Of a stretch of 54,607 nucleotides of DNA, positions 9,737-27,432 are shown piece after piece (positions within the stretch are counted from its first letter, which is position 1; every line of letters starts with the position of its first letter). Location of the stretch: NCBI GenBank assembly GCA_017302505.1, contig JAFLDH010000008.1, forward strand, positions 1 to 54,607, given 5' to 3'. Under the pieces are notes generated by a model that saw only the letters and a program-made list of their open reading frames with translations, was not told where the DNA came from and did no database searches. The DNA is from Burkholderiales bacterium. GTDB lineage: Bacteria > Pseudomonadota > Gammaproteobacteria > Burkholderiales > Burkholderiaceae_C. The translations under genes were made by a program, and so were the position numbers.

Positions 9737-10011
9737 CTGCCGAGGCCGAGCCGACCGACGATCCAGCGGCGAAGCGCGGCGCTGCCCTCCGCGTCGGCCA
9801 CCAGTTCCTTCGGCGTTCTGCCTGCCAGCTCTGCGATGGGCAGCGACACCCAAACCGAATAGCCGAGCGCAGCCGGGACGATCTGCTCCGGCGCTTCCTC
9901 CATGCCGAGTTCCAGCAGCAACCTGCGGACGTGGGCGATGGCCATCAGGTCGGCGGGCATGGGCTCGTGCGGCAGGATCCAGTGCCAGCCGCGGTCAGTC
10001 CGGGCGCTCAC
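9733..10011 (-). CDS. Small protein coupled to the tyrosine recombinase
   Basis: 92 residues from a GTG at 10011, overlapping the end of the recombinase gene by 17 nt, so it is probably co-translated. The C-terminus (LAGRTPKELVADAEGSAALRRWIVG) loosely recalls the MbcA/ParS/Xre antitoxin-type toxin-binding region, but the match is weak. A later ATG at 9960 is possible. It may be an accessory factor for recombination; function unknown. Confidence 0.5.
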   Translation of the reverse strand: MSARTDRGWHWILPHEPMPADLMAIAHVRRLLLELGMEEAPEQIVPAALGYSVWVSLPIAELAGRTPKELVADAEGSAALRRWIVGRLGLGS

Positions 10012-11068
10012 TCGAGTAGTCGACGCGCCGGTAGCGGTCCATCACCCGCATCTCGACCACCCCGAGCCACTTGGCCACCAGGTCCGGTGACTTGCCGCGG
10101 CGCAGCTGGCGCAGCGCGAAGGTGTGGCGCAGGCGGTAGGCACCGCCCTCGACCAGGCTCTTGTCGATGCCGGAGGCTTCGAGGACCGCCTTCACCGCGT
10201 CGTAGTGGGTCACCTTGCCCCATGGCTTGCCAGTACGCGTCGCGGGAAACAGGAAGTCGCCAGCGAGCTTCTGTTCCTTGCGCACCTGCAGCCAGTAGGC
10301 CAGCACGCGGCCTGCCCACTTGATCACCGGTGCTTCACGTTCCGGGCTGTCGCCGTAGGCGGGCACGTGGACGGTGCCCGGCACGCCTTTCTCTTCGCCC
10401 GTGCGCAGCACGGGGGATGTCAGGCGAAGCATGCGGACGTCCGCGGGGGTCAGCCCGGAGCCCAGGTGCAGCGCGACGGCAGTGCGATTGCGCAGTTCCT
10501 GCCACGTGATGTCGGCGCCGCGACGGCCCGAACGGGGCAGCCCAGCGGAGAGGTAGTTGACGAGGATGCGGGCCTCGGCAGGGGCCAGGTAGTCGGGCAG
10601 TGCGTCGCGCCGATTGGCGTTGGCATAGAGCCAATCCTCACGGGATTGCAGCAGGGTGGCTGCCGCCCGGTTCGGGGCGGCAGCCCCGGTGGCCACTGCG
10701 CGGATCTCCAGCACGCTGTCGATGAGCTTCAGTAGGCGCCATGCGTGCCGCGGCGTGAACTTCCCGGCCTCCTTGAGCCGGCTGGGCTTTGCACGAGACG
10801 CGTTGGCGGGTTCGAGCCGGCTGTTGATGAACGCGCCGAGGTCCGCTTCGGAGATGCCATCCAGGCCGATCACGGGTGACTGACTCAGGCACCACTCGGC
10901 GAAAGCCTGCCACAGCACCGTGTACGCGCGGATGGAGGACGTCAATGTGATCTTGCGCGAGGCTGCCGTGCGCTGGTGATCGAGCCATTGATCGAAGGCC
11001 TCCTGGTACGCCCGCACCTGGTCAGCCGGGTCGGCGTCGTCGAACAGGTCAAGGTTCTGGGTGGCCAT
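9995..11068 (-). CDS. Tyrosine recombinase/phage-integrase family protein with altered active site
   Basis: 357 residues from the ATG at 11068. Residues about 25-95 look like a SAM-like core-binding domain and about 155-350 like the catalytic domain. Visible: LRHTF with the second Arg (about 314), the LG turn (about 335) and a C-terminal Tyr nucleophile candidate in DRYRR (about 346). The usual first Arg of the GLR box is replaced by Thr (GSGLTPADV, about 207), and the His of HxLR is replaced by Tyr (YRLR). It may therefore be inactive, need a partner, or use a neighbouring Arg (VRML). It is the only integrase-like gene in the accessory block. Confidence 0.8.
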   Translation of the reverse strand: MATQNLDLFDDADPADQVRAYQEAFDQWLDHQRTAASRKITLTSSIRAYTVLWQAFAEWCLSQSPVIGLDGISEADLGAFINSRLEPANASRAKPSRLKEAGKFTPRHAWRLLKLIDSVLEIRAVATGAAAPNRAAATLLQSREDWLYANANRRDALPDYLAPAEARILVNYLSAGLPRSGRRGADITWQELRNRTAVALHLGSGLTPADVRMLRLTSPVLRTGEEKGVPGTVHVPAYGDSPEREAPVIKWAGRVLAYWLQVRKEQKLAGDFLFPATRTGKPWGKVTHYDAVKAVLEASGIDKSLVEGGAYRLRHTFALRQLRRGKSPDLVAKWLGVVEMRVMDRYRRVDYSSERPD

Positions 11069-11607
11069 GGGCAAGGATCATAAAACCGAACCAACGGCGC
11101 GGGACGTTGCTTCGCCAGCATTCCTGCCTTGGCCACTTCGCCGGCCCCAAAGACGCAAGCCAGGAGAGGGGGCGAGCGGCGGCGCCGTTGGTTCGGATTT
11201 GGGCGCCCGGTATCCGGCAGTGCACGCGACGGAGCACCACCCGTCAGGCCCTCCTGCCGGTGCACCGCGACGTGGGCCCCCAATGGTGGGTACCCATCAA
11301 CTCGCTCGTTGGGGCGATCGGTGAATTCGCCGACCGGCGGGAAGATTGGTTGCAGCGCGCCCGTGGTCGCGCCGCGCTACAGACGATTTGCAGGGCCTGT
11401 TTCGATCGGTCGGGCCGCATTGCAGAAGGAACGTGGAAACTCTGCGTTCACCTCAGTGCGGTTGGATGCAGGTTGAGACGGTCTGCGTACCTCTTGCAGG
11501 CGGGCTTGACGGCGCGCAGACGCCGAGCACCCTGGGGCATGGACAACAGAACCAGTCGACGAACCGTTGGAGCGGGCAGACGGACCAATCTCAGGACGAA
11601 AAACGAC
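11069..11607. other. 539-bp intergenic region between recombinase and hybrid kinase
   Basis: Divergent promoter region. Open frames continue upstream of the kinase start, but the residues there are Arg/Pro/Gly-rich, match nothing and have no ribosome site, so I call no gene. No clear repeats, attachment site or terminator were seen. Confidence 0.5.
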
Positions 11608-14262: not shown

Positions 14263-14627
14263 CAGTCCCCGAGCTCCGGCCGCCAGGCCTGCACGATGGC
14301 CTTGAACTCGGCCTCATAGCCCAGGCTGTCGGGGTAGCGGTGAACGCGGCCGATCAGGCCGAACACGGTCGTCATGTCGGCCACGATGGCGGTGTCCAGT
14401 GCCCACAGCGAGGTCAGGTCGAAGGCACCGCAGCTGCCTGTGTTCCACCAGGCCAGCAGAAAGTCCGCAACGACCCGGCTCTGCCCGGAGTCGCGCCTGG
14501 CATGCGCGAGCAGGCGCTCGAGTGCCGCCACTTCCTCGGAGGTGATCGCAGGGGGCGGCGCTTCAGCGGCGGCGGCCAGCATCGCCTGCGCAATGACCTG
14601 ATCGGGTTGGCGCGGCGTCGTGCTCAT
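14262..14627 (-). CDS. DUF7673-like protein in a toxin-antitoxin operon
   Basis: 121 residues from the ATG at 14627, which overlaps the upstream gene stop by 4 nt; its own stop overlaps the toxin ATG by 4 nt. The sequence (VVADFLLAWWNTGSCGAFD, LWALDTAIVADMTTVFGLI, YPDSLGYEAEF) resembles conserved proteins of proteobacterial mobile elements annotated DUF7673, to my recollection. No catalytic motif is obvious. Strict coupling between antitoxin and toxin suggests a third TA component or a chaperone-like modulator; this is inference. Confidence 0.65.
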   Translation of the reverse strand: MSTTPRQPDQVIAQAMLAAAAEAPPPAITSEEVAALERLLAHARRDSGQSRVVADFLLAWWNTGSCGAFDLTSLWALDTAIVADMTTVFGLIGRVHRYPDSLGYEAEFKAIVQAWRPELGD

Positions 14628-15091
14628 GCGCCTTTCCTTCGTGCGGAGCCGGCACGCTGGAGCTCGATCGCATCGATTTCGGCATCCATGGCCGCCATGG
14701 CCTCGTCGTGCGGGACGCTCGGGCGCGGATCGTCGAGCGATTCCTGGATCTCGGCGGCGAGCCACCGGTTGTGCGCCGCAGCCTGGTGGGCCGTGCGCAT
14801 CGCTTCGGCCTGGCTGGAGCGGCTGCGGCTCATGTCCTTTTCGTCGGGGTTCCAGTCGGTGGCGTCGAGCTGCGCCACGGCGATGCCAACCTCGCGCAGC
14901 AGGATCATGGCCGAAGCCGGGTTGCCGAAGCGGCGCGGCTCGGTGCTGCGGGCCTTGGCCAGGACGGCGTCCTGGCCGCTTCGGGTGGCGATGCGCAGCA
15001 TGAAGGCGCCGCCCTGGCCCTTGAGCGTGACGCCGGCGACGCCGCCGGCGGCCGCGGTGGCGCGCAGTTGTTCCAAGGTCATGCTGTGCAT
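14624..15091 (-). CDS. Antitoxin-like protein, first gene of the TA operon
   Basis: 155 residues from the ATG at 15091. The C-terminal 60 residues (W-x-AEIQ-x-SLDDPRPSVPHDEAMAAMDAEI) have the acidic helix pattern of ParE/RelE antitoxin toxin-binding arms. The N-terminal 90 residues are a separate small domain (MTLEQLRATAAAGGVAGVTLK ...) that may bind DNA. An antitoxin longer than the usual 80 residues fits a three-component operon. A promoter probably lies in 15092-15270. Confidence 0.65.
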   Translation of the reverse strand: MHSMTLEQLRATAAAGGVAGVTLKGQGGAFMLRIATRSGQDAVLAKARSTEPRRFGNPASAMILLREVGIAVAQLDATDWNPDEKDMSRSRSSQAEAMRTAHQAAAHNRWLAAEIQESLDDPRPSVPHDEAMAAMDAEIDAIELQRAGSARRKGA

Positions 15092-15269
15092 AGGATCCAC
15101 CGCATCAGAGATGGAATCATTGTGCACGGTTGACAGAAGTCGTGCAACGACCGCCGGCCCAAGCACGAGATTCGATGAGAGTCCGGAAGCACCGCGCCAC
15201 AAGGGCGACAAGGTCCCAGCAAAGCCAGCGCTGGCGGGAGCAGCGCTCATCTCGTATGCTTCTGCCGCG

Positions 15270-15300
15270 ATTGTCGCCCAAACCGCTAATGCGCGACAAT
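15270..15300 (-). repeat. Inverted repeat ATTGTCGC-N15-GCGACAAT
   Basis: Perfect 8-bp arms at 15270-15277 and 15293-15300 between the antitoxin gene and the end of the helicase-partner gene. The inner arm and spacer (minus strand GTCGCGCATTAGCGG) resemble the motif at 72-90 in inverted orientation. It may be an operator of the TA operon, 180 bp upstream of its start, or a mobile-element end. TGTCAACTTGAGCGG at 15309-15323 next to it looks a little like an IS21-family terminus, but no transposase is nearby. Confidence 0.4.
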
Positions 15301-15368
15301 AATGTTTATGTCAACTTGAGCGGATTTCAGCTGTCGAATCCGGTCGCGACGCCGCGCTTCGGCGCCAG

Positions 15369-16937
15369 TCAGCCGACCGCGTCATGTGGCAGGGTCGCAA
15401 AGTGGTCAAGGAAGGCGAAGTCGCTCACGACCGCGTCACCAAACCAGAACCTGCGCTCGTCGGGCGTGCTGCCGTTCCCTCGACCAGAGCCGTAGAGCGA
15501 TGACGCCAACACTGCCCGGGCAAACTCAGCCATCTTCCGCAGCTTGGCATCGGACTGGGTTACAAACCCCAGTGGCACGTTGTATCGATCGGCGCTGGGA
15601 ACCGCCCACTGATACGCCGCTGCGCCGAAGATGCCGGGGACCAGCAAGACCTCGATGCACTCTTGCGCGGGCTGGTAGGGACCAAGAAGCACTCGGCTGA
15701 AACCTGCATCGAGCAGATGGCGCGCACGCTTGACCAGGCGATCTCGGTTCTCATCCTGCCGGCATGGCGCAACGGCAACAATGTCCAGTTCTGAGCCCAT
15801 GCCCTCCTTGAGCGCGGCACGGATGCCGTTGATGAGGTCACGAACAAGGCTCGTACGTCCCCACAGATCGGAATCCGGAATCACCCAAAAGATGGCGGCT
15901 GGAAGTTCGGGATGCGCCGTCCTCTTGGGAGCAGAGAGCGATTTGCGCAACACATCGAGAAGACGCGACTGGCATTTGGGCATGTAGAGCGCACCCAGGA
16001 GAGCCTTGCTCTTGCCTGCGTCATAGACCTCGCCGTTCGCCTGTCCATGCACGTCTCGCACGTACCGTGCAAAGTCGAGTGTCGGATCCTTTCGCAACCC
16101 TATCCGCCCGTCAGGCTTGACCACGGTGGTCTTCTCACCACTGGTGGACGGAGTCAGCAGATAACGCGCCAGCAATTCATCGTCGAATCGCTCAATGAAG
16201 GCGCGCAGGTGGTCGGCTCGAATCGAGAGGGCGGCGATCCGATCGGCAGTCAGCGTTCTCACCTGAGAGCGCAGCGACTCCGGCAAGAGTTCGAGCTGTG
16301 CATCAATCTCGAACTCAACATTGCCCTCGACGTCGACTTCGAAGTGCACGGGAAGCGGGACGCTGAACGGGCGACCGGCGCGGATCTCATCCACCTTGTA
16401 GCAAGCGTAGGCGCGTCGGGAGACCTCTTCCAGTTCGAAGCGCTCGATGTCGAGGAAGTGCTTGTGAAACGCCGCCTCTGCGCGGTCGATCGTCTTACCT
16501 TCCATGGGATCGTCCGAGTTCCACTTCAGTTCCAGGGCGTTGTCCCAATAGCTGCTCGACAATGCCTTTGGCAGCGGTGTGAAGCTCAGCAACTCGAAGA
16601 CGGGACGGCTCTGCCGCTCAGCGATCTTCGTGAACCGCGGCAACCCGTCAGACGATGCCGCGAAACGCGATTCGGCATACGACGTCAATGAAATTCGGCC
16701 GTTGGCCTCGCCGACGAGGCCTTCTTCCCTCAAGAGTTCAAGCAGATCCCGCAACTCACTTGGGGAGAGGCCAAAGTACTCTCGCAGCGCGCCGACCTCC
16801 AATGGACCGCTCAGATGCAGCAAGCGCACCGCAAAGTCCGTCATGACAGGAACCTGGCGATCGATGGAGACATGGCAGCGAACGTTGAAGAGTTGCGCCG
16901 GAATGGCCACTGCGACAGTATTGAAACGCTCACGCAT
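15369..16937 (-). CDS. Winged-helix protein of unknown function, partner of the NERD-kinase-helicase
   Basis: 522 residues from the ATG at 16937, which overlaps the 3' end of the helicase gene by 8 nt and has GGAG eight bases upstream. Residues about 32-95 form a likely winged helix (GPLEVGALREYFGLSPSEL, then LLREEGLVGEANGRISLT). The remaining 400 residues include an all-alpha middle and a Rossmann-like alternating C-terminal region (about 330-480: AAIFWVIPDS, LDIVAVAPCR, RVLLGPYQP, VLLVPGIFG). No HKD phospholipase, Walker or nuclease motif was found. Tight coupling implies that it works with the helicase, perhaps as its DNA-sensing or regulatory subunit. Family not recognised. Confidence 0.8.
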   Translation of the reverse strand: MRERFNTVAVAIPAQLFNVRCHVSIDRQVPVMTDFAVRLLHLSGPLEVGALREYFGLSPSELRDLLELLREEGLVGEANGRISLTSYAESRFAASSDGLPRFTKIAERQSRPVFELLSFTPLPKALSSSYWDNALELKWNSDDPMEGKTIDRAEAAFHKHFLDIERFELEEVSRRAYACYKVDEIRAGRPFSVPLPVHFEVDVEGNVEFEIDAQLELLPESLRSQVRTLTADRIAALSIRADHLRAFIERFDDELLARYLLTPSTSGEKTTVVKPDGRIGLRKDPTLDFARYVRDVHGQANGEVYDAGKSKALLGALYMPKCQSRLLDVLRKSLSAPKRTAHPELPAAIFWVIPDSDLWGRTSLVRDLINGIRAALKEGMGSELDIVAVAPCRQDENRDRLVKRARHLLDAGFSRVLLGPYQPAQECIEVLLVPGIFGAAAYQWAVPSADRYNVPLGFVTQSDAKLRKMAEFARAVLASSLYGSGRGNGSTPDERRFWFGDAVVSDFAFLDHFATLPHDAVG

Positions 16938-19900
16938 GAGACAGGCTCCGCTTCAATTCCTTGGACGGCACGAACTGGGCGAGTCGTTGCTCCGCAAGGC
17001 GAGCGACTTCATCAAGCACGCGGTGCATCGGTGTAGCCGTGCGAGGCCTCCACATGGCTGAAGAGCTCACGATCACCAGCCGATCCTTCGCTCGGGACAT
17101 CGCCACGTTGATCCGCTCCGGATCGTTCAGGAAGCCGATTTGCTCGCTGGTGTCGTTGCGCACCACCGAGAGCACGATGATGCGGTTCTCCTTGCCCTGG
17201 TAGCTGTCCACCGTACCTACTGAGAAGCGGCCACGAAGACCGGATGCCCATTCAGCCTGCTCGAGCTTCTTCCGGATCAAGTCGCGTTGATCGGCGTACA
17301 TGGCGATGACCCCGATGACGGGCTCACGGTCGCCTTCTTTCGCTTGTACCTGTTCCAAGAACTCCGCCGAAGTCAGGATGGCCCGAACTACTTCTACGAC
17401 AGCTGCAGCTTCTTGCTCATTCACAAGCGCACCTTCGTGGGTGCCGGCTGAACGGTGGAAGGCCTCGCGACCCTGGTCTTGGGTGTCGACCCATACGACC
17501 TGCGAGGCGAGGAACGGCGGCAGACTCTCGTATTCGTCCCCCGGTGGTGTGCGCCCGACCTCGAGTGCATCGGCGTAGAAGCAGTGCGACACCAGCCGGC
17601 TGATGTGCTCCGCCATGCGGTACTGCACGCGTAAGGTCCGTCCAACCGACTGGCCATACTTCGAGGAGAACGCCCGCTGGAAGTTGTTCATCCGCCGGAA
17701 GTCCTTGCGCGACATTCCCAGCAGCGCTGAGGCTTGGTCCTCAACGGTGCGAGGGTAGGACGGCGGCAGTTGCAGGTGATCTCCCACCAACAGCACTCGC
17801 TTTCCAGCCTGCATCGCGACGACCAACTCCATCGGAGACGCTCGTGCCGCCTCATCGACAATGACCCAGTCGTAGGGAACTTCCGTGATGCCAAGCGCCT
17901 GCTTGCCAACGCCTACGCAGGTACCCGCGACAATGCTGGAACTGCGTGCGAGGAAGGCGGTGTAGTTGGAGCGCGGGCTGCGCAGCACCTGGGTAAACTC
18001 CGTCGACAGGCGAGCGATCTGCGCCAGACGAGCGCGTTTGGCCGGGCTCGGCGAGCCGTGCTGATGAGCCAGTGCCTCTAGCCTGTCGTCCAGGAGATCG
18101 CGGAAGTTGGCTTCATCGCCAACCGACGCATGAATGTCGAATTGACGTCCCGCGACCTCGACGACCACCTGACTAAGCCTTTGCAGATGCTCTTTGGCCG
18201 AGGCGTCTTTGCCGTCGGCCTCGTCGATAGCGCGTGTGAGGCGGTCAATGCTCTCGAGCAATGGCCCTAGTGTCGTGTGAAGTTCCGTCGCGGCCCGCAC
18301 ATAGCCTTCCGGTAGGCCCATGGCGACGCCCACCGCTCGAACGCGATCCTTGATTTCAGCGTCAAAGCTCTCACGGTAGCGCTGGCGCAGCGAATCTTCT
18401 TGGACGCTACGGAGACCGGGTGACACCATGGATTGCAGACCGACGCGCACCATGGACACCTCCATGTTCGAGGCACGCAGCGATCCGGTCACCTTGTCCA
18501 TCGCGTTGTTCACTGCCTCGTGCGACTGGCTGACCAGCAAGATGTTGTGACCCAGCCCCCGCGATAGAACCAGGTGAACAAACGATGCAATGAACTTTGT
18601 CTTCCCCGTGCCGGGTGGCCCCTGCAGTAGTGAGATCGGGCCGTACGACAGGGCCGTCCGCAATGCTTCTTCCTGGGATGCGTTGAGGTCGTACTCACCG
18701 AGGTCCCCCAGGTCGACCGCGACGTCATGCTTCGGCATCCGTTCGGTATCTGGATCGAAGTAATCAACCAGCGAAGGGATGAGGCCACCACCCGCGAGCA
18801 CCCTCTTCATCGCCGCTACCCGCCGTTCGGACGCAACTCTTTCGAAGGTGCCGCGCACATGCAGGACATCGCCGGTCTTCGGAGAGAAGCGCATGCTCTT
18901 GGCATGCACCCGCATCACGTCGCGCCCGATGTCAGGCGAGACCCAGCCCACGGTGAACCATCGGTCGCTGCCGTCGGTAGCGTCCACCCCGCGCTCCAGC
19001 AACTCTATGTCCTCGTCCTCCGAGAAGTCGAGAACCCCGCCCTCGCAGTCAAAGGGGATGATCCACTCATCGCTTTGCGGGGGGAATTGCTTCGCGCCTT
19101 GCCGCACCGTGATCTTGGTGACGTTCATTTCATCGGTGTCCGACAGCGCCGTCCAGAGTGCCATTGCCGAAACCCGCTGCAACGGCGCGGCCTCAGACTG
19201 ACGGGCGTATGGGTCGGCACCGACGGCCGCGGCAGTTTCATCACCTTCAGGCTCATCCGGGGCGTTCGCGCTGTAGAGCTGATAGAGCAAACCGGCCAAT
19301 GCGGCGACGTCAGCCTCTTCCGCAAAGGTGACTTGTATCTCTGCGTTCAGCGAGAACGCCTTGCGCCGGTAGGCGCTGACGAAATCGATGTGGTCGATTT
19401 CCTTCACTGCAGCGTCTAGGACAACGTCTTCTTCAGGGTCGTATTTGATGTAGAGGTCTTGGCGCATCCCGACGACGTTGAATCGCACGTGCCCGGTCTC
19501 CGCATGTCGAATCGCGCGCACCGAGTACTCGCCATTGTTGGAGACCAAGGCCAGCGACGAGGGCCCGCCACGGCCACGGCGCTTGAGGGTGGTCTTGAAC
19601 GTCGGAAGCGACCGCGGCTTCGGGAAGAGTTCGTCCTGCAGCGTCTCCGCCAGAAGGTCAAGCGGCGGCAGGGCATCCACCAACTCAATAGCACGCGCTA
19701 CGTCGCTTCGAGTGCCCGCGAACTCCTCCGGCAGCAGCGCAAGAACAAGCGCACACACAGCAGACGCGTCGCGGTGCAGCGGTGAAGCACTCTCCAATGC
19801 CTGCGGCACCATGCCGACTGTGATCCCATCGTCGCCATCGGCGCTCAGATCCGGGATGTCCACCAACACGACCCGGGGCAACTCGCCCTCAAGGGTCTGC

Positions 19901-21795
19901 GGCACAACGACGTTGTCCGCCTTCACGTCGCCGTGCGAAAGGCCCAAGACGTGAAGGCGTCGCACGGCGTTGAGCAGGGCGTGCGCGACGAGTGCGCGTT
20001 GCCGGCCGTCTGGGGAGGCCGATAGCCACTCGGTCAGCGTCTGACCTTCCGTCCACCGCGTGACCAGCATCAGGCCGAATGTGTTCAGTCCAAAGTCAAG
20101 CACCTCTGGCGCGGCATTGAACCCGGACTGCCGCAGCGACCGGGCCTTCTGCAGAAAAGCGAGCAGCCGCAGGTTGCGCGCCGAGTACTTCGGGTCGAAC
20201 TTGAGCTGCGGCCAGCACTTCACTAAGACGCGGTCGCCGTTTTGCTCTGACTCGTAGACCATTTTGGTCGGGACAGACGAGATCACGCGCTTGGCCATGA
20301 GCGTCATCGGACCGGCGTCGGTCTCGTAGCCCTCGAAGTCCTCGGCGCAGACATCAGGCCCAGCATCGACGGCCAAGCAAGCGTTCAAGGCGTCGAGGGC
20401 CTCGGATGCGTTTCGGTAGCGTGCTTCAGGGTCGAGATCCATGGCCTTGGCGTACCAAGGTGCAAGCGCTGGGACATTGAGCGTGAGAGTGCTGTCGTAG
20501 ACGGGTACGTCGTTGAGACGCTCCAGTTCGCGGCCCTCGAGCATTTCGTAGACAAGCACGCCAAGCAGGAAGACGTCGCGGACAAAGGGCTCCGATGACC
20601 GCGCGTGCGCGGCGACGCCTTCGTCTTCGGGCAGTTCGATCGATCCAGTCTCCAGCTCAATCCGATGGACGCCGACGGTTTGAGCTTGGGGGATCCGCGC
20701 GGCGGCAAATGTCGACAGGATCACGCGGGCGGGTTCGAGCACCCACAACGTGCGCTTCGTGATGTCGCGGTGGGCTATCCCCAACGCATGCAACTTTGAG
20801 AAGCGAGACAGGATGCTCTTTGCCAACGAGCGTCGATCAGACTCGCTCATGTCGCCGTTGCGAGCCAAGTGCTCGGAGAGGCGTTCAATGCCTGTCGGAA
20901 GGCGATACGCCTCTACAAAATTGGTGGTGATGTCGTCTGCCGTCGCCGAGCCAATGGGCTCCAACAGGTCTACGTGCAGTTCTGGCGCTTGGACTCGAAG
21001 CGTCTCGTTCAGGCGCAGTTCGCGAAGGCCTATGGTCTGGCGCTCGACTGTGGATGTGCCACCAGCAGCGAGTTCTTCGAAGTTCCACTTTCGCAGTAGC
21101 GCCTTGGAACTTCGGCTCTCCTGGTGCTCGGCCAAGAACTCCGACCAGATCTTGCGTGGATGGACGTAGTCCGCCTGGTCCTCGATCTGCTCAAAGCCAT
21201 GCAGCACGGTGCGGCGCTTGAGCACTGCCGGGTTGGATGTGGAAAAGATGGCGTTGTATTGCTGCCGCTGGGGCAGGGGATCTACCGATCGATAGTTCCA
21301 CGTCGGCGGGATGTCGGGAAAGCGCTTCTTGTAGCGAGTCGCGTCGGATGCGGCATGTACGAAGTCGGGAAGCATTGCGACGAAGCGGCGTTGCTCGTCC
21401 GGGAAATTCATCAAGCGGCACTTCGGATGGCACAGCACCACCAGGGACTCAACGAAGGGCACCTTGAGGGAGGCGTTCTTCTCCTGAATGAACTTTCTCA
21501 GCGCGCGTGCCTTGTTGTCGGTGATGTCTACCGGCGACGGCATCGGGTCCCCGCGATGGAACCACTGACCGGCCGAATACTCGATATCGCCGGACCAATT
21601 CTTGAGCTCGACCACCAGGATCCGATTGGTCGTCAGCAACAGCAGATCGATGTCCAGCGGTTGCTTGGAACCTCGCGTGACCAGTCGGAAGGCCGCGTAG
21701 GCACCCCAGTCGCGGGGCAACTTCGCTTCAAGCTCGCGCAAGGCGGCATGCTCGACTTCGAGAACCCCCCGGGGACTGAGATAGTTGATTCGCAC
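16930..21795 (-). CDS. NERD / pseudokinase / kinase / superfamily 1 helicase multidomain protein
   Basis: About 1621 residues from a GTG at 21795 (GGGAGG nine bases upstream); an ATG at 21891 would add 32 unlikely residues. Domains in order, numbered from the GTG: NERD nuclease-related domain (about 10-125; Asp49, Glu63, Lys65 in DID ... ELKNW); kinase-like domain 1 (about 240-470) with HRD at 342-344 but the catalytic Asn and DFG lost (STF), so probably a pseudokinase; kinase-like domain 2 (about 495-715) with VKCW Lys526, HGDVKADN at 621-628 and Asp646; an uncharacterised middle; and a Upf1/DNA2-like helicase with GPPGTGKT (1059-1066), DEAA (1314-1317), GDHLQLPP, QYRM, VDSYQGKE and NVAMSRAK. 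NERD plus kinase recalls PglW of BREX type 2. A phage or plasmid defence role is inferred. Confidence 0.9.
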   Translation of the reverse strand: MRINYLSPRGVLEVEHAALRELEAKLPRDWGAYAAFRLVTRGSKQPLDIDLLLLTTNRILVVELKNWSGDIEYSAGQWFHRGDPMPSPVDITDNKARALRKFIQEKNASLKVPFVESLVVLCHPKCRLMNFPDEQRRFVAMLPDFVHAASDATRYKKRFPDIPPTWNYRSVDPLPQRQQYNAIFSTSNPAVLKRRTVLHGFEQIEDQADYVHPRKIWSEFLAEHQESRSSKALLRKWNFEELAAGGTSTVERQTIGLRELRLNETLRVQAPELHVDLLEPIGSATADDITTNFVEAYRLPTGIERLSEHLARNGDMSESDRRSLAKSILSRFSKLHALGIAHRDITKRTLWVLEPARVILSTFAAARIPQAQTVGVHRIELETGSIELPEDEGVAAHARSSEPFVRDVFLLGVLVYEMLEGRELERLNDVPVYDSTLTLNVPALAPWYAKAMDLDPEARYRNASEALDALNACLAVDAGPDVCAEDFEGYETDAGPMTLMAKRVISSVPTKMVYESEQNGDRVLVKCWPQLKFDPKYSARNLRLLAFLQKARSLRQSGFNAAPEVLDFGLNTFGLMLVTRWTEGQTLTEWLSASPDGRQRALVAHALLNAVRRLHVLGLSHGDVKADNVVVPQTLEGELPRVVLVDIPDLSADGDDGITVGMVPQALESASPLHRDASAVCALVLALLPEEFAGTRSDVARAIELVDALPPLDLLAETLQDELFPKPRSLPTFKTTLKRRGRGGPSSLALVSNNGEYSVRAIRHAETGHVRFNVVGMRQDLYIKYDPEEDVVLDAAVKEIDHIDFVSAYRRKAFSLNAEIQVTFAEEADVAALAGLLYQLYSANAPDEPEGDETAAAVGADPYARQSEAAPLQRVSAMALWTALSDTDEMNVTKITVRQGAKQFPPQSDEWIIPFDCEGGVLDFSEDEDIELLERGVDATDGSDRWFTVGWVSPDIGRDVMRVHAKSMRFSPKTGDVLHVRGTFERVASERRVAAMKRVLAGGGLIPSLVDYFDPDTERMPKHDVAVDLGDLGEYDLNASQEEALRTALSYGPISLLQGPPGTGKTKFIASFVHLVLSRGLGHNILLVSQSHEAVNNAMDKVTGSLRASNMEVSMVRVGLQSMVSPGLRSVQEDSLRQRYRESFDAEIKDRVRAVGVAMGLPEGYVRAATELHTTLGPLLESIDRLTRAIDEADGKDASAKEHLQRLSQVVVEVAGRQFDIHASVGDEANFRDLLDDRLEALAHQHGSPSPAKRARLAQIARLSTEFTQVLRSPRSNYTAFLARSSSIVAGTCVGVGKQALGITEVPYDWVIVDEAARASPMELVVAMQAGKRVLLVGDHLQLPPSYPRTVEDQASALLGMSRKDFRRMNNFQRAFSSKYGQSVGRTLRVQYRMAEHISRLVSHCFYADALEVGRTPPGDEYESLPPFLASQVVWVDTQDQGREAFHRSAGTHEGALVNEQEAAAVVEVVRAILTSAEFLEQVQAKEGDREPVIGVIAMYADQRDLIRKKLEQAEWASGLRGRFSVGTVDSYQGKENRIIVLSVVRNDTSEQIGFLNDPERINVAMSRAKDRLVIVSSSAMWRPRTATPMHRVLDEVARLAEQRLAQFVPSKELKRSLSHA

Positions 21796-21961
21796 AGTAG
21801 AGACCTCCCGAGTCTGACTTGCTGGTGACCCGCCTACGTCGGACGGATCCCAAGAACCTCGAACTGTGGTGTCGGGCTCACGCCACAGCATAAGCGGTGG
21901 ATGGGTTGTTCAATCGCCTGTGCGCATTCCAAGTCGATCCTGAGGCACGAAAGTGTCGTCC

Positions 21962-24900
21962 CTAGTGAAAATCCCGGCTCGCCGTCATCAACCCGCCCAG
22001 CATCCCGGACAGGTCCTCCACGTGCGCCGCAATGAGGTTGCGCACATCCCCATCGCGCTGCCACGTCCCCTTCACCGCCAGCAACCGTGACCGAAGCAGC
22101 GGTGCCCTCAGCCGCGCCTTCACCTTCGGCCACACGATCACCTGCACGCTGCCGGTCTCGTCCTCGAGCGACACGAACATCACGCCCTTGGCAGTTTCCG
22201 GCTGCTGCCGCACCGTCACGATCCCGCAGGCGCGCGCCAGCCGGCCAGTCTCCAGGTCATGCAGTTCGGCCGCCGTGCGCCAGCCCTGCTTCGCGAGCAC
22301 CGGCCGCAGGATCGCCAGCGGATGCCGCCTCAGCGTGAGGCCGGTCGCCGCGTAGTCCCACACCACCTCCTCGCCTTCCGGCGCCGCCGGCAGCTCAAGC
22401 TCGTCCTCGTCCACCGGCGCGTGCTTCAACAACTGCGGCGCCGAGCGCTGCCCCGCCGCCTCCCAGACCTGCTGCCGCCGGTGTCCGGCCAGGCTCATCA
22501 GCGCATCGGCCGCGGCCAGCAGCGTCATCTCGTGCTGCTCCACCTCGGCCCGCTTGGCCAGGTCCTCGGCACCGTCGAACGGCCGCACGCTGCGTTCCTT
22601 CAGGATGCGCATCGCCGTCTCGGCCTTCAGCCCGACCACCATCCGCAGCCCCAGCCGCACCGCCGGCGGATGGGGCAGTCCTTCGAGCGTGCAGTCCCAG
22701 TCGCTGTGCATCACGTCGACCCGGCGCACCTCGACACCGTGCCGCTTGGCGTCCTGCACCAGTTGGCTCGGCGAGTAGAAGCCCAACGGCTGGCTGTTGA
22801 GCATCGCTGCCAGGAACTCCGCCGGGTGGTGGCACTTGATCCAGCAGCTCGCGTAGACGAGCAGCGCAAAGCTCGCCGCGTGGCTCTCCGGAAAGCCGTA
22901 TTCGCTGAAGCCCTTGATCTGCTCGAAGATCGCCTCGGCAAACGACTGCTCGTATCCGCGCGAGGTCATGCCGTTGACGATCTTGTCGTAGTACTTCTCC
23001 AGGCCGCCCTTGCGCCGCCAGGCCGCCATCGCCCGTCGCAGCTGATCCGCCTCCCCCGCAGTGAAGCCAGCCGCCAGGATCGAGATCTGCATCACCTGCT
23101 CCTGGAACACCGGCACACCGAGCGTGCGCCCGAGCGCCTCCTCGAGCGCCTTGCTCGGAAACGTCACCGGCTCCTTGCCCTGCCGCCGATTGAGGTACGG
23201 GTGCACCATGCCGCCCTGGATCGGCCCCGGCCGCACGATCGCGACCTCGATCACCAGGTCGTAGAAGCAGCGCGGCCGCAGGCGCGGCAGCATGCTCATC
23301 TGCGCGCGGCTTTCGATCTGGAAGACGCCGACGGTGTCGGCCTGGCAGATCATGTCGTAGGTGGTCTGGTCCTCGGCCGGGATGTCCTGCATGCCGAAGG
23401 CGTAGCCTTTTCGGGCGCTGATGAAGTCCAGGCTCTTGCGGATCGCGGTCAGCATGCCGAGCGCGAGCACGTCGACCTTCAGCAGGCCGAGCGCGTCGAT
23501 GTCGTCCTTGTCCCACTGGATCACCGTGCGATCGGGCATCGAGGCGTTCTCGATCGGCACCATGCGCGACAGCGGTCCCTTGGTCAGCACGAAACCGCCC
23601 GGGTGCTGCGACAGGTGGCGCGGCAGGCCCATGATCTGGCTCGTCAGTTCGACCAGCTGCCGGATCGCCAGGTCGTCGAGCGACAGGCCGAGCTCGACGA
23701 TGCGCTCGGTCTTGATGCTGCCGCCGTCCCACCAGGTGTGGTTCTTGGCCAGCGCGTCGATCGTCTCATCCGGAAGCCCAAGCGCCTTGCCGACATCGCG
23801 GATCGCCGACTTCGGCCGGTAGCTGATCGCCACCGCCGTCAGCGCCGCGCGGGCGCGGCCGTACTTCGCGTAGAGGTACTGGATGACTTCCTCGCGCCGC
23901 TCATGCTCGAAGTCGACATCGATGTCCGGCGGCTCGTTGCGCTCCTTGCTGATGAACCGCTCGAACAGCACCGACATGCGCGCCGGGTCGACCTCGGTGA
24001 CGCCAAGGCAGTAGCAGACCACCGAGTTGGCCGCCGAACCGCGGCCCTGGCAGAGGATGTGGCGCGAGCGCGCGAAGGCGACGATGTCGTAGACGGTCAG
24101 GAAGTAGTGCTCGTAGCGCATCTCCCCGATGAGCTGCAGCTCGTGCTCGATCTGCGCTTCGACCTTGGCCGGCACGCCCGCGGGCCAGCGCCGCCCGGCA
24201 CCCTCGTACGTGATGCGGCGTAGGTAGCTCGCCGGCGTCTCGCCGGCGGGCACGACTTCGTCGGGGTACTGGTACTTCAGCTCATCGAGCGAGAAGCTGC
24301 AGCGGTCAGCGACGTTCAGCGTCTCGGCAAGCAGGTCGACCGGAAAGGTCTGGGCCAGGCGCAGCCGCGTGCGCAGGTGCCGCTCGGCGTTGACCTGCAG
24401 TTCTCGGCCGCAGCCCGTCAGCGGCCGGCCGGTGCGTATCGCGGTCATCACGTCGTGCAGCGCCTTGCGCGAGCGCACGTGCATGTAGACGTCGCCAAGC
24501 GCCACCAGTGGGATTGCTGACAGCTCGCTCGCCTCGCGCAGCTTGTGCAGCCACATCTCGTCGTCGAGCTGGCGCAGCAGTTCGACGCCGAGCCAGCAGC
24601 GGCCGGTGAAGTGGGTCAGTAGCCAGCGCGTGAGACCCACCAACTGTGCCGGCGTGGCCCCGCGCGCCGGCGAGGCGATCACCACGCAGCCGGCGAGTTC
24701 GTCGGCTGCGATCTCGTCGCGCGCGAGCCGGTAGGTGCCCTTCTCCGAGGCTCGGCGGAGCTTGGTGATGAACTGGCAGAGGTTGCCGTAGCCGTCGAGG
24801 TGGCAGGCAAGTACGACGAAGCTGAAGGGTCCCGGCTCATCGGGGTGGTCCTCGCCCTCGCCTACCGGCGGCGTCACCGCGAACTGGCTGCCGATCAGGA

Positions 24901-25123
24901 GCTTGAGATCCGCCTTCTTGGCCTCGACGTGCGCACGCACGATGCCGGCGACCGAGCACTCGTCGGTCAGTGCAAGCGCGCGGTAGCCCATCTGCGCGGC
25001 GCGCTGCACCAGTTCCTCGGGCTGGCTCGCGCCGACCAGGAAGCTGAAGGTGCTGACGCAGCGCAGCTCGGCGTAGTCCGGCAGGCCGCCGCCGGTATTC
25101 GGGATCGAAGCGCTGTCGCCCAT
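21962..25123 (-). CDS. dnaE2: Error-prone DNA polymerase DnaE2 (ImuC)
   Basis: 1053 residues from the ATG at 25123, seven bases behind the imuB stop. A C-family polymerase: a PHP-like domain at the N-terminus (ELRCVSTFSFLVGAS, with the usual first His already lost, as in other DnaE2 proteins), then the palm with PDIDVDFEHERRE (about 399-411) containing catalytic aspartates, thumb and fingers, a helix-hairpin-helix region, and an OB-fold near the C-terminus. It ends in SRDFH, typical of this family. It performs SOS-induced translesion synthesis with ImuA and ImuB. Full length. It is the last gene of the cassette, with 165 bp separating it from the upstream helicase module. Confidence 0.96.
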   Translation of the reverse strand: MGDSASIPNTGGGLPDYAELRCVSTFSFLVGASQPEELVQRAAQMGYRALALTDECSVAGIVRAHVEAKKADLKLLIGSQFAVTPPVGEGEDHPDEPGPFSFVVLACHLDGYGNLCQFITKLRRASEKGTYRLARDEIAADELAGCVVIASPARGATPAQLVGLTRWLLTHFTGRCWLGVELLRQLDDEMWLHKLREASELSAIPLVALGDVYMHVRSRKALHDVMTAIRTGRPLTGCGRELQVNAERHLRTRLRLAQTFPVDLLAETLNVADRCSFSLDELKYQYPDEVVPAGETPASYLRRITYEGAGRRWPAGVPAKVEAQIEHELQLIGEMRYEHYFLTVYDIVAFARSRHILCQGRGSAANSVVCYCLGVTEVDPARMSVLFERFISKERNEPPDIDVDFEHERREEVIQYLYAKYGRARAALTAVAISYRPKSAIRDVGKALGLPDETIDALAKNHTWWDGGSIKTERIVELGLSLDDLAIRQLVELTSQIMGLPRHLSQHPGGFVLTKGPLSRMVPIENASMPDRTVIQWDKDDIDALGLLKVDVLALGMLTAIRKSLDFISARKGYAFGMQDIPAEDQTTYDMICQADTVGVFQIESRAQMSMLPRLRPRCFYDLVIEVAIVRPGPIQGGMVHPYLNRRQGKEPVTFPSKALEEALGRTLGVPVFQEQVMQISILAAGFTAGEADQLRRAMAAWRRKGGLEKYYDKIVNGMTSRGYEQSFAEAIFEQIKGFSEYGFPESHAASFALLVYASCWIKCHHPAEFLAAMLNSQPLGFYSPSQLVQDAKRHGVEVRRVDVMHSDWDCTLEGLPHPPAVRLGLRMVVGLKAETAMRILKERSVRPFDGAEDLAKRAEVEQHEMTLLAAADALMSLAGHRRQQVWEAAGQRSAPQLLKHAPVDEDELELPAAPEGEEVVWDYAATGLTLRRHPLAILRPVLAKQGWRTAAELHDLETGRLARACGIVTVRQQPETAKGVMFVSLEDETGSVQVIVWPKVKARLRAPLLRSRLLAVKGTWQRDGDVRNLIAAHVEDLSGMLGGLMTASRDFH

Positions 25124-25130
25124 GGCCCGC

Positions 25131-26444
25131 TCACGCGAAGATGCCGTGCAGGTACCAGGCGGTCTCGTCGCTGGCCAGCCGTTCCTGGTAGACCCACAGC
25201 ACGCCGGCGTGGTCGCTGAGCGCGACCCAGTAGTCGCGCTGGACGTGGCCGGTGCGCGCGTCGGCGCCCTCGCCCAGCCGGTGCCACCAGCCGCCTTCAA
25301 CGCGGTGCGGACCGGTCAGCAGGTGCAGCGCGCCCAGGTATAGCGGTCGGTGGCCGCGCGTCGCGAGCTTCAGCGGCTGGGGCAGCACCCAGGTCGGTTG
25401 CGGCATCGTGATCGGCTCGGCGCCGTTGCGGGGCACGGGCAGTGGCACGGGTTGCCACATCTGCATCCACTCCAGGCGGTGGTCCTCGGTGAGGACCGGG
25501 CGCAGCACGCGGTCGGGGCCGAGGCGTGCGGCGATGCGCTCGAGCACCATCTGCAGCGACTCGCCCTTCTCCGACGGGTCGGGCAGCAGAGAGAGGCTCT
25601 TCTCGTCGAGCGAGACGACCTCGGTGGCGCTGAGCCAGAGTTCGCCGGCGGGCGCTTTCAGCTCGACCCGGGCCAGGTGTTCGGCGAGAAGCCGACACAG
25701 GTGTTCGAGATTGCGACTCGGCTCTGCCGTGCGGATCGTGATCTCGCCGCCCTCCCCCGCCTCCTTGGAGCGCATCACGTCGTGGGACCACTTCAGGGTG
25801 AAGGCGGTGATCCCGCTGTGGCGGGCGGCGAGCCAGCCGCACATCTGCAGCAGCAGGCGGCGCGCGCCGAAGAGCAATGCCGGCGCCATCTCGACGCGCG
25901 ACATCAGCTCCAGCCGCGCTTCGAAGGTGTCGGGGAGTTCGACCCAGACGTGCGCCTCTGGAAGCAGGCCGTAGGCGCGATCGAGCGCACCCAGCAGTTC
26001 CTTGTCGAAGCGGCGGCTGACACCCCCGCGAGGGAGACGGCGCACATCCCCCAAGGTGCGGCACCCGAGGCGCGACAGGATCCCCTCGTGGGGTGCCACC
26101 GCAGTGAGGACCTTCATCGGGAGGGCATCGAGCAACTCTTCCAGGGGGCGCTTGAAGCCGTTCTCGATGCCGGCACGCGCGAGCAGGTGCGCGGCCAGGC
26201 TGTTGGTGGCCCACGCCATGGTGGTCACCCCTTGGTCGGCACCCTCCTGGACGACGCGGTCACGCAGGGCCCGCTTGCCGCCGAACAGGCGCGTGCTGGC
26301 CTCGACCTCGAGGAGGACAGCTTCTTCGGAGGTGGCAACCCGGGGTGTGAACTGCAAGGCCCAAGTGGCAACTCCGCGAAGCGCCTCATCGGACGGGGGC
26401 GTGCCGTCGGGCCCGGGCGGAAGGAGTAGTGCCGCCCAGAGCAT
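25131..26444 (-). CDS. imuB: ImuB, catalytically degenerate Y-family polymerase-like protein
   Basis: 437 residues from the ATG at 26444 with GGGAG upstream, overlapping imuA by 59 nt. Y-family fold: the N-terminus MLWAALLLPPG lacks the catalytic Asp seen in active members, as is standard for ImuB. It contains palm/finger-like segments (LLEVEASTRLFGG, ARAGIENGF, GILSRLGCRTLGDVRRLPRGG) and a C-terminal segment with YWVALSDHAGVLWVYQER. It acts as an adaptor linking DnaE2 to the beta clamp during mutagenic repair. A beta-clamp motif was not pinned down. Confidence 0.93.
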   Translation of the reverse strand: MLWAALLLPPGPDGTPPSDEALRGVATWALQFTPRVATSEEAVLLEVEASTRLFGGKRALRDRVVQEGADQGVTTMAWATNSLAAHLLARAGIENGFKRPLEELLDALPMKVLTAVAPHEGILSRLGCRTLGDVRRLPRGGVSRRFDKELLGALDRAYGLLPEAHVWVELPDTFEARLELMSRVEMAPALLFGARRLLLQMCGWLAARHSGITAFTLKWSHDVMRSKEAGEGGEITIRTAEPSRNLEHLCRLLAEHLARVELKAPAGELWLSATEVVSLDEKSLSLLPDPSEKGESLQMVLERIAARLGPDRVLRPVLTEDHRLEWMQMWQPVPLPVPRNGAEPITMPQPTWVLPQPLKLATRGHRPLYLGALHLLTGPHRVEGGWWHRLGEGADARTGHVQRDYWVALSDHAGVLWVYQERLASDETAWYLHGIFA

Positions 26445-27282
26445 GGACTGCAGCTCCCTGGGGAACGGTGGAAGCCAGCTCGCGCTCGGGCGCAGGCGTG
26501 CGCGAAGGCTCGCGCGAGGCGATGAGGCGGCTGGGCACCATCAGGCGCGGCGTCAGCACCGCGTCGAGCCCACCGGGCACCGAGCGCAGGCGAATGACGC
26601 CGTCGTGCGACGGGCCGCGGCGCTTGAGCACCTGGACGTGGATCTCCCAGTCGAGGGCGAAGCGGGCCATCACGCGCAGCGGCGCGGCCGAAGCCTCGTG
26701 CTGCGCGGCGGCAGGACGGAACAGGAAGACCGGGCCATCGCAGGCCTGCGCACACACCTGCAGGCGGCGGATCTGCTCGGGGCGGGCCTGCGGCAACCAG
26801 GCCACCAGGGCGCCGCAGGCCCCGGCTTTGACGAGCTGTTCGGTGCACCACAGGCGCTCGGCCGGCGTGTCGGCCTGGATCCACACGAGATGCTTCTCGT
26901 CGATGCCGGCGTGGTGCAGGCCGGGTACGTGCGGCGTCTTGGGCGGGCCCACGACGACCACGCGGCCGCCGGCGCCGACGACCCGGCCGAGGGCCGGGCC
27001 GATGACGCGCCACTCGAGCACGGAGGGCTGCGGGCTCAGGACCTCGGAGATGGACTGGCAGGGCCAGCCGCCACCTGGCAGCTCGGCATCGAGCTCCGCG
27101 AAGCCGCTCGGCGTGACCGGGCCGCTCTGCGTGCCGAGGTCGGTACCGCGCCAGAGGGCCTGTTCGACCTCAGGCGGCAGCTCGCCCGGCTGGGAGCGCC
27201 GGGCGCGAGATCGCGATGGGTGAGCGAAGCCCTGGGCCGGCAGCCCATCGTCGTCGCCGGCCCATGACAGGACAGCGGACAT
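26386..27282 (-). CDS. imuA: ImuA, translesion synthesis-associated RecA-like protein
   Basis: 298 residues from the ATG at 27282. The family's opening (ELPPEVEQALWRGTDLG, FAELDAELPGGGWP, EVLSPQPSVLEWR) is easily seen. A RecA/SulA-like core follows (VVVVGPPKTPHVPG, LVWIQADTPAERLWCTEQ). The tail is Arg/Pro rich. It is the first gene of the imuA-imuB-dnaE2 mutasome. A LexA-like box at 27296-27311 ends only 13 bp before the start, which would block transcription or fit a near-leaderless message. No strong ribosome site is visible. Confidence 0.92.
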   Translation of the reverse strand: MSAVLSWAGDDDGLPAQGFAHPSRSRARRSQPGELPPEVEQALWRGTDLGTQSGPVTPSGFAELDAELPGGGWPCQSISEVLSPQPSVLEWRVIGPALGRVVGAGGRVVVVGPPKTPHVPGLHHAGIDEKHLVWIQADTPAERLWCTEQLVKAGACGALVAWLPQARPEQIRRLQVCAQACDGPVFLFRPAAAQHEASAAPLRVMARFALDWEIHVQVLKRRGPSHDGVIRLRSVPGGLDAVLTPRLMVPSRLIASREPSRTPAPERELASTVPQGAAVHALGGTTPSARARRHAPVR

Positions 27283-27295
27283 GGCAAATCATGTA

Positions 27296-27311
27296 CTGTA
27301 TGGGCATCCAG
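27296..27311. promoter_or_regulatory. LexA (SOS) box
   Basis: CTGT-N8-CCAG, one base away from the CTGT-N8-ACAG LexA consensus. The flanks extend the symmetry (TACTG ... CAGTA, 27294-27313). It lies 13 bp upstream of imuA and 122 bp upstream of the divergent SRAP gene, so LexA may control both. Confidence 0.8.
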
Positions 27312-27432
27312 TATTGCACCAGTCCGGCGGCCTTGCCAAGAGGTCGACCAATGCGGGCCTCGAGCGGCCGCTGCGATCGTGACGAAGTGCCCTTCCGTAC
27401 ACTGGTTCGAGCAGACCCGAAGGAGCATCGCC

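What the first reader, a model, noticed from the sequence alone, without database searches (positions are those of the whole stretch)
15369..21795. Two-gene NERD-kinase-kinase-helicase module with a coupled winged-helix partner
Seen: one 1.6-kb-residue polypeptide holds a NERD nuclease-like domain, a kinase fold without its catalytic Asn and DFG, a second kinase fold with HGD-K-N and Asp kept, and a complete superfamily 1 helicase; the next gene overlaps it by 8 nt and encodes a winged-helix protein with no recognised effector. Known: NERD plus Ser/Thr kinase is the layout of PglW in BREX type 2, and NERD-helicase combinations exist. Inference: a single-chain fusion of kinase signalling, nuclease and helicase in an accessory region suggests a phage or plasmid defence system, with a pseudokinase as a regulatory sensor.
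Basis: partly seen in the sequence, partly recalled or inferred. Interest (0 to 1): 0.82.

Follow-up and report, generated by a model that had tools for sequence, protein, structure and literature searches.

The report
Mokosh type I anti-phage gene pair
These two genes are a known kind of bacterial defence against viruses, called Mokosh type I, in a form whose nuclease domain sits on the helicase protein, and they occupy a spot where related bacteria keep other defence genes.

Summary
The long gene (16930-21795, minus, GTG start, 1621 aa) encodes a NERD nuclease, a degenerate kinase, an intact kinase and an SF1 helicase; the 522-aa partner overlaps it by 8 nt. It is not a new system: PADLOC names the pair MkoA (1551 bits, full length) and MkoB (404 bits), i.e. 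Mokosh type I. The defence inference is supported, the implied novelty is not.

Three things go beyond the label. (1) In 16 MkoA rows, window included, the NERD catalytic positions are kept, the first kinase always lacks the DFG Asp and has Arg for the beta3 Lys (Asn changed in 14), and the second kinase is intact in 15. (2) Mokosh I comes in two forms: MkoA without NERD beside an MkoB with a PLD (HKD) nuclease (6 of 6), and NERD-kinase-kinase-helicase MkoA beside an MkoB without HKD (0 of 20). This suggests a nuclease swap. (3) The pair is a sharply bounded, lower-GC insert (15317-21961) behind imuA-imuB-dnaE2; congeners carry PD-Lambda-2 (G008) or IetAS (G008, G022) there.

The mechanism (helicase sensing, kinase-gated NERD cutting) is inferred, not shown.

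The parts
16930..21795 (-). mkoA: NERD - pseudokinase - kinase - middle region - SF1 helicase, 1621 aa from GTG 21795 (first ATG of the frame is at 21891)
   Evidence: PADLOC MkoA PDLC03921 1551 bits, residues 34-1648 of the 1653-aa frame; start from homology and GGAGG before the GTG
21430..21756 (-). NERD nuclease domain of MkoA
   Evidence: Pfam PF08378 8.7e-17, residues 46-154 of the 1653-aa frame; D50, E63, K65
20356..21153 (-). kinase domain 1, degenerate (limits approximate, set by me)
   Evidence: Pfam Pkinase best stretch 337-509 of the 1653-aa frame; R235, T349 and S361 at catalytic positions
19726..20298 (-). kinase domain 2, catalytic residues kept (limits approximate, set by me)
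   Evidence: Pfam Kdo best stretch 608-678 of the 1653-aa frame; K526, D623, N628, D646
17059..18687 (-). superfamily 1 helicase core (UPF1/DNA2/SEN1-like)
   Evidence: Pfam AAA_11 and AAA_12; best PDB sequence relatives UPF1, DNA2, NAM7, SEN1, SMUBP-2
15369..16937 (-). mkoB: 522-aa partner, N-half shared with PLD-type MkoB, no HKD motif
   Evidence: PADLOC MkoB PDLC03923 404 bits; PDLC03922 48.6 bits on residues 6-234; no HKD
15317..21961 (.). variable insert holding exactly mkoB and mkoA
   Evidence: left-flank homology ends at 15316-15319 in 3 congener loci; right-flank homology begins at 21960-21962 in 5 loci; GC 0.614
15294..15316 (+). dif-like site CGACAAT-N5-TTATGTCAACT at the left edge of the insert
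   Evidence: 1 match in the window with up to 3 mismatches, none in 100 shuffles; 9 copies in 7 of 41 genomes with up to 1 mismatch, reversed control 0
21962..27282 (-). flank: imuA (26386-27282), imuB position (25131-26444), dnaE2 (21962-25126)
   Evidence: NCBIfam ImuA 1.1e-62 and error-prone DNA polymerase 1477 bits; the 437-aa frame in the imuB position has no NCBIfam hit at 0.01 and no Pfam hit at 1e-4 and is named from position and by eye
27294..27313 (+). LexA-box-like sequence upstream of imuA
   Evidence: TACTG-N10-CAGTA, the only one in the window; exact in the G008 and G022 loci; in G036 the first two bases differ; the motif is recalled

Best explanation
A complete Mokosh type I anti-phage system in its NERD form. 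Shown by sequence: MkoA carries a NERD nuclease with its catalytic residues, a kinase domain without the residues needed for catalysis, a kinase domain with them, and an SF1 helicase; MkoB is encoded in an overlapping gene and lacks the HKD nuclease motif of the other MkoB form. Inferred: MkoA and MkoB act as one complex. The helicase, perhaps guided by the helix-turn-helix half of MkoB, engages invader nucleic acid (RNA, an R-loop or a DNA end). The helicase state is relayed through the pseudokinase-kinase pair, which phosphorylates MkoA, MkoB or another protein. That releases the NERD nuclease, which cuts nucleic acid and stops phage growth. In this form NERD does the job that the PLD domain of MkoB does in the other form.
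For: Membership: full-length PADLOC matches for both proteins. Partner conserved: of 8 MkoA loci fetched with an MkoA alignment (L023-L030), 7 have MkoB directly downstream; the eighth, L026, is an incomplete MkoA gene near a contig end. NERD: D50 and K65 in 16 of 16, position 63 E in 13 and D in 3; kinase 1 lacks the DFG Asp and the beta3 Lys in 16 of 16 and the Asn in 14 of 16; kinase 2 intact in 15 of 16. Nuclease swap: HKD in 0 of 20 MkoB of this form and 6 of 6 of the other, while none of the six MkoA of the other form has a Pfam NERD hit at 0.01. Defence context: insert limits; PD-Lambda-2 in G008 and IetAS in G008 and G022 at the matching place; homologue between pglX and pglZ of a BREX-1 operon. 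The same NERD - inactive kinase - active kinase order is described for PglW and some DndF (PMC12839542, passages).
Against: No activity was tested and no structure could be predicted. NERD could be a binding domain rather than the effector. L030 keeps NERD but has a degenerate second kinase, so kinase gating may not be general. The two forms look like two clades (two PADLOC models each), so the NERD/HKD pattern may be one or few evolutionary events, and several of the 20 MkoB rows are near-identical. Five of the six other-form MkoB were found with models that contain the PLD part, which favours HKD; only L031 was found through MkoA. That the C-half of this MkoB descends from PLD is not supported. 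The right-edge homology limit coincides with the dnaE2 stop codon, so on that side it is what any new neighbour would give.
Confidence: 0.6

Rival explanations
1. Mokosh type I, but the kinase is the effector: once the helicase senses phage nucleic acid, kinase 2 phosphorylates host or phage proteins and shuts growth down (abortive infection), and NERD only binds or trims nucleic acid.
For: Kinase 2 residues kept in 15 of 16; four of six MkoA of the PLD form also have a clear kinase; PD-T4-6 and MAD6 kinase models match this chain.
Against: NERD catalytic positions are kept in 16 of 16, counting D for E in 3. L030 lacks a normal HGD-N in kinase 2 yet keeps NERD. Two of six PLD-form MkoA have no (L062) or only a weak (L116, 0.005) kinase hit.
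Confidence: 0.25
2. A housekeeping helicase-kinase (for instance RNA quality control, UPF1-like) rather than defence.
For: The helicase core is UPF1/SEN1-like.
Against: MkoB in the own genome only among 61; 6 strong hits (over 180 bits) of 398 genomes across the phylum, own included, and 7 weak ones; found in 40 of 72,556 plasmid records and 1 of 50,697 phage records; other defence genes in the matching place in congeners.
Confidence: 0.03
3. A BREX type 2 or BREX accessory component (PglW-like).
For: PglW and MAD6 models match the NERD-kinase part; the nearest relative lies inside a BREX-1 operon.
Against: The Mokosh model matches end to end and far better (1551 against 91 bits). PglW as described in PMC12839542 (passages) ends in wHTH and STAND-like domains, not a helicase. 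No BREX gene among the window frames scanned (not every frame was scanned).
Confidence: 0.05

Closest known systems
Mokosh type I (MkoA PDLC03921 / MkoB PDLC03923 in PADLOC)
   Same: Both proteins match over their length, same order, overlapping genes.
   Different: PMC11672841 (passage) describes type I as RNA helicase and PLD nuclease in separate genes with an added Ser/Thr kinase. Here MkoA has NERD and two kinase domains, and MkoB has no HKD. A table in PMC10952713 (passage) already lists NERD as well as PLD-like domains for Mokosh type I.
Mokosh type I, PLD form (PDLC03920 / PDLC03922; e.g. L031, L116)
   Same: Related helicase; N-half of MkoB related (PDLC03922 hits the window's MkoB; PDLC03923 hits L031).
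   Different: No NERD, one kinase at most, PLD with HKD on MkoB.
PglW of BREX type 2
   Same: NERD, inactive kinase, active kinase in that order (PMC12839542, passages; model match).
   Different: PglW ends in wHTH and inactive STAND domains, not an SF1 helicase.
MAD6 of the MADS defence system
   Same: NF047741 matches residues 45-511 of the 1653-aa frame at 4.4e-41.
   Different: 141 bits against a cut-off of 460; the model has 612 positions, too few for this helicase (inferred).
Mokosh type II (MkoC)
   Same: SF1 helicase related (107 bits).
   Different: Single chain with C-terminal PLD (PMC11672841, passage).

Membership tests
Mokosh type I | MkoA homologue with SF1 (COG1112-type) helicase | tested here: met
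   PDLC03921 1551 bits over residues 34-1648; AAA_11/AAA_12
Mokosh type I | MkoB encoded next to MkoA | tested here: met
   PDLC03923 404 bits; genes overlap by 8 nt
Mokosh type I | Ser/Thr kinase domain in MkoA | tested here: met
   two kinase folds, the second with K526, D623, N628, D646
Mokosh type I | PLD-family nuclease on the partner (as PMC11672841 describes type I) | tested here: not met
   no HKD in window MkoB nor in the other 19 MkoB of this form examined; no Pfam PLD hit at E up to 1. PADLOC nevertheless names this form MkoA/MkoB, so membership rests on the database definition, not on the textbook one
Mokosh type I | anti-phage activity | not testable with these tools
BREX type 2 (PglW) | PglW with wHTH and STAND C-half | tested here: not met
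   PglW model's best stretch is residues 47-454 at 91 bits; the C-half is a helicase
MADS (MAD6) | NCBIfam MAD6 equivalog cut-off | tested here: not met
   141 bits against 460

The most novel reading that the evidence does not exclude
Mokosh type I is two nuclease-swapped machines built on one helicase-MkoB core. In one, the nuclease (PLD) rides on MkoB; in the other, a NERD-pseudokinase-kinase cassette, shared with PglW and DndF (and its NERD-kinase part with MAD6), is fused to the helicase and MkoB lacks HKD. The cassette would be a portable kinase-gated nuclease head that different sensors plug into. In this genus the system, like IetAS, sits at the tail of an SOS mutagenesis operon with a LexA-like box, and beside a dif-like site, so defence could be raised by the SOS response.
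Probability: 0.3. Interest if true: 0.55.

Novelty: new member of a known kind. Interest (0 to 1): 0.35.

Why it matters
The locus itself is one more Mokosh type I. Its value is comparative: the NERD form and the PLD form give a natural test of which domain is the effector, and the degenerate kinase 1 beside an intact kinase 2 makes kinase gating testable by a few point mutants. The same cassette in PglW and DndF means an answer here could carry over to BREX type 2 and other systems whose kinase role is unclear.

Tried and rejected
Degenerate PLD in MkoB: by eye the C-half (around E429 and VPLGF) resembles the HKD region, but profile comparison does not support it. C-half against C-half, probability 0.2 percent, P 0.39; full length gave only a weak N-half match, probability 12.5 percent; against 22 motif-extracted sequences (at least three look like chance motif matches) P 0.41 and 0.34, no better than the N-half negative control (0.33). 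The positive control (PLD form, 99.9 percent) is partly circular because those proteins are also in the 22. I dropped the claim.

Housekeeping role and BREX membership were rejected (rivals). A plain CTGT-N8-ACAG LexA pattern gave 0 matches. The pattern had the spacing one base short and gave 0; the box was then found by script with TACTG-N10-CAGTA. The motif is recalled.

I first read kinase 1 as having lost its Asn in every row; the exact count is 14 of 16 (L005 and L006 keep it; one search corrects and my second note).

The PDLC03922 search over 249 genomes matched 90, mostly over the PLD part of the model in the rows listed (the list was cut), and rang in 8 of 14 control genomes; of these only G134 (260 bits) was used as a pair. 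G115 pieces (L016, L108, L117) were not pursued. The viral-contig scan gave 3 loci, with matches to the helicase part only. No second dif-like site was found in the window, and no repeat brackets the insert: longest shared word between the two edges is 8 nt.

Full report
What is there. Two minus-strand genes, 16930-21795 and 15369-16937, overlapping by 8 nt. The start at 21795 (GTG) is favoured by where homology begins and by GGAGG before it; the ATG of the longer frame is at 21891. Pfam gives NERD, two kinase-family hits and the two halves of an SF1 helicase for the first, and only weak helix-turn-helix hits for the second. The nearest solved helicases by sequence are UPF1, DNA2, NAM7, SEN1 and SMUBP-2; the partner has no PDB relative at E up to 5. 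The genome holds one copy of mkoA.

What it is. PADLOC matches the first protein to MkoA (PDLC03921, 1551 bits, residues 34-1648 of the 1653-aa frame) and the second to MkoB (PDLC03923, 404 bits), that is Mokosh type I. Mokosh was named by Millman and others in 2022 (recalled; the paper is not held). PMC11672841 (passages) describes type I as helicase and PLD nuclease in separate genes with an added Ser/Thr kinase. A table in PMC10952713 (passage) lists NERD and PLD-like domains for type I. [quoted passage not shown] I saw no experiment for either in those passages. PMC12278908 (passage) only lists MkoA and MkoC among defence helicases. Four paper searches (40 of 60 papers listed; 10 of 14,659; 12 of 28; 18 of 18) listed no paper whose title is about Mokosh's mechanism, and I found no description of the two forms below in the passages read. 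The library lacks most subscription papers, so this is a limited absence.

Active sites across the family. Sixteen MkoA rows (window; seven plasmid or phage-record loci L003-L009; eight genome loci L023-L030; of L005 and L008, which are in two pieces, only the first piece; L026 incomplete; the C-terminal fragments of L010 and L012-L015 left out) were aligned. NERD: D50 in 16, E63 in 13 with D in 3, K65 in 16. Kinase 1: Arg at the beta3 Lys position in 16, Ser (14) or Thr (2) at the DFG Asp in 16, Asn position changed in 14 (kept in L005, L006), H342 and D344 kept in 16. Kinase 2: Lys 16, HGD Asp 15, Asn 15, DFG Asp 16; L030 is the exception. PMC12839542 (passages) reports the same order, NERD then inactive then active kinase, in PglW and a subset of DndF; MAD6 also matches the NERD-kinase part. 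The order is therefore known as a cassette; what is added here is that MkoA of this form carries it, with residue counts.

Two forms of Mokosh type I. Of 20 MkoB of the window's form (21 rows less one duplicate of the window; some near-identical) none has HxK(x4)D/E; of six MkoB of the other form all have it. All six MkoA of the other form match PDLC03920 and have no Pfam NERD hit at 0.01; four (L031, L040, L046, L061) have a clear kinase hit, L116 a weak one, L062 none. Caveats: four of the six (L040, L046, L061, L062) were found with a model built from two PLD-type MkoB and L116 with the PADLOC PLD-type MkoB model; only L031 came in through MkoA (whose list was cut at 80 of 300 relatives). 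A second look by the kinase N-terminus of MkoA, with a model from L031, L040, L046 and L061, found only those same four beside a helicase, each followed by an HKD protein. The MkoB N-halves are related: PDLC03922 hits window residues 6-234 (1.8e-13) and PDLC03923 hits L031 residues 30-207 (2.2e-12); for the other five no such reciprocal hit passed the limits used. Whether the C-half of the window's MkoB is a decayed PLD is not supported. Fusion of the cassette with loss or replacement of PLD is my inference.

Neighbourhood. Homology with congeners ends at 15316, 15319 and 15316 on the left (three loci, from G008, G006, G022) and starts at 21960-21962 on the right (five loci); the segment between holds exactly mkoB and mkoA, GC 0.614 against 0.676 and 0.698, third-position GC 0.71-0.75 against 0.82-0.92 for three flanking genes. 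The right limit is the dnaE2 stop codon. On the right lie an error-prone polymerase gene and ImuA, and between them a frame in the imuB position that no HMM named. Seven congener loci from four genomes were examined (not every frame was scanned). G008:C90 has PD-Lambda-2 B and C between the same flanks, next to a short dnaE2 remnant. G008:C11 has IetA and IetS behind dnaE2, and G022:C37 has the identical pair (100 percent). G006:C48 (HipA-like; PDC-M66A 9e-8) and G008:C138 (PDC-M42C 5.8e-7) have only weak candidates. G036:C61 and G022:C54 had no PADLOC hit among the 4 and 3 frames scanned. So it is a spot used by defence genes, confidently in three of seven congener loci (two genomes), weakly in two, not seen in two. 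The nearest relative of the pair among loci examined (54 and 44 percent identity) lies between pglX and pglZ of a BREX-1 operon on a Polaromonas plasmid. MkoB was found in the own genome only among 61 genomes searched; the MkoB model matched 13 of 398 genomes drawn from the phylum, 6 of them strongly (over 180 bits, own included) and 7 weakly. It is in 40 of 72,556 plasmid records and 1 of 50,697 phage records.

Possible link to SOS and to Xer recombination. TACTG-N10-CAGTA lies at 27294-27313 before imuA; it is exact in the G008 and G022 loci, and in G036 the first two bases differ. mkoA follows dnaE2 in the same direction after 166 nt with no terminator-like site found in 21500-28000 (shuffles average 2). 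Co-transcription is therefore possible, not shown. The left edge of the insert is the end of CGACAAT-N5-TTATGTCAACT (15294-15316): 9 copies in 7 of 41 genomes with conserved arms and variable centre, reversed control 0; five of the nine have no relB-like gene within the stretch held around them. Patterns resembling chromosomal dif occur in relatives, 12 of 41 and 17 of 41 genomes for two variants with up to 3 mismatches, none in the own genome. I read it as a dif-like Xer site; that it is this species' own dif, or an operator of the relB-like gene for four of the copies, is not excluded. No partner site was found at the right edge.

How it works. Shown: domain content, kept and lost residues, gene coupling, family membership, place in the genome. 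Inferred: complex formation, helicase sensing, kinase gating, NERD cutting. I give the kinase-gated NERD model 0.6 including identity as Mokosh (identity alone I hold near 0.95), and the kinase-as-effector version 0.25.

Verdict. A complete, divergent member of a named system. Interest 0.35: ordinary as a discovery, useful as a test case for the NERD-kinase cassette and for the effector of Mokosh.

Noticed in passing
window 15294-15316: dif-like site CGACAAT-N5-TTATGTCAACT marks the left edge of the insert; same arms with different centres occur elsewhere in congeners.
   Followed up: partly
window 21962-27313: LexA-box-like sequence before imuA-imuB-dnaE2, with defence genes directly behind dnaE2 in the window and in G008:C11 and G022:C37 (IetAS): defence cargo at the tail of an SOS mutagenesis operon.
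   Followed up: partly
L142:3975-6414: PD-Lambda-2 B and C genes between the same two flanks in a congener (G008:C90), next to a short dnaE2 remnant.
   Followed up: partly
L003:4137-10551: Mokosh pair embedded between pglX and pglZ of a BREX-1 operon on Polaromonas plasmid NC_007949.
   Followed up: no
L008:1782-7974: Vibrio casei plasmid mkoA in two pieces with an IS3-family transposase gene between them.
   Followed up: no
L006:1-14452: mkoAB in a Pseudomonas phage record (vB_PaeS-D14H) with an integrase gene on one side and three recombinase genes on the other.
   Followed up: no
window 14624-15250: 208-aa protein with a RelB-type antitoxin motif near its C-terminus, beside the insert; conserved in three congener loci.
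   Followed up: no
window 9995-11074: Phage-integrase family tyrosine recombinase about 4 kb from the insert.
   Followed up: no
L030:2656-7917: Acinetobacter MkoA whose second kinase also looks degenerate (HGN, no catalytic Asn) while NERD and helicase are kept.
   Followed up: partly
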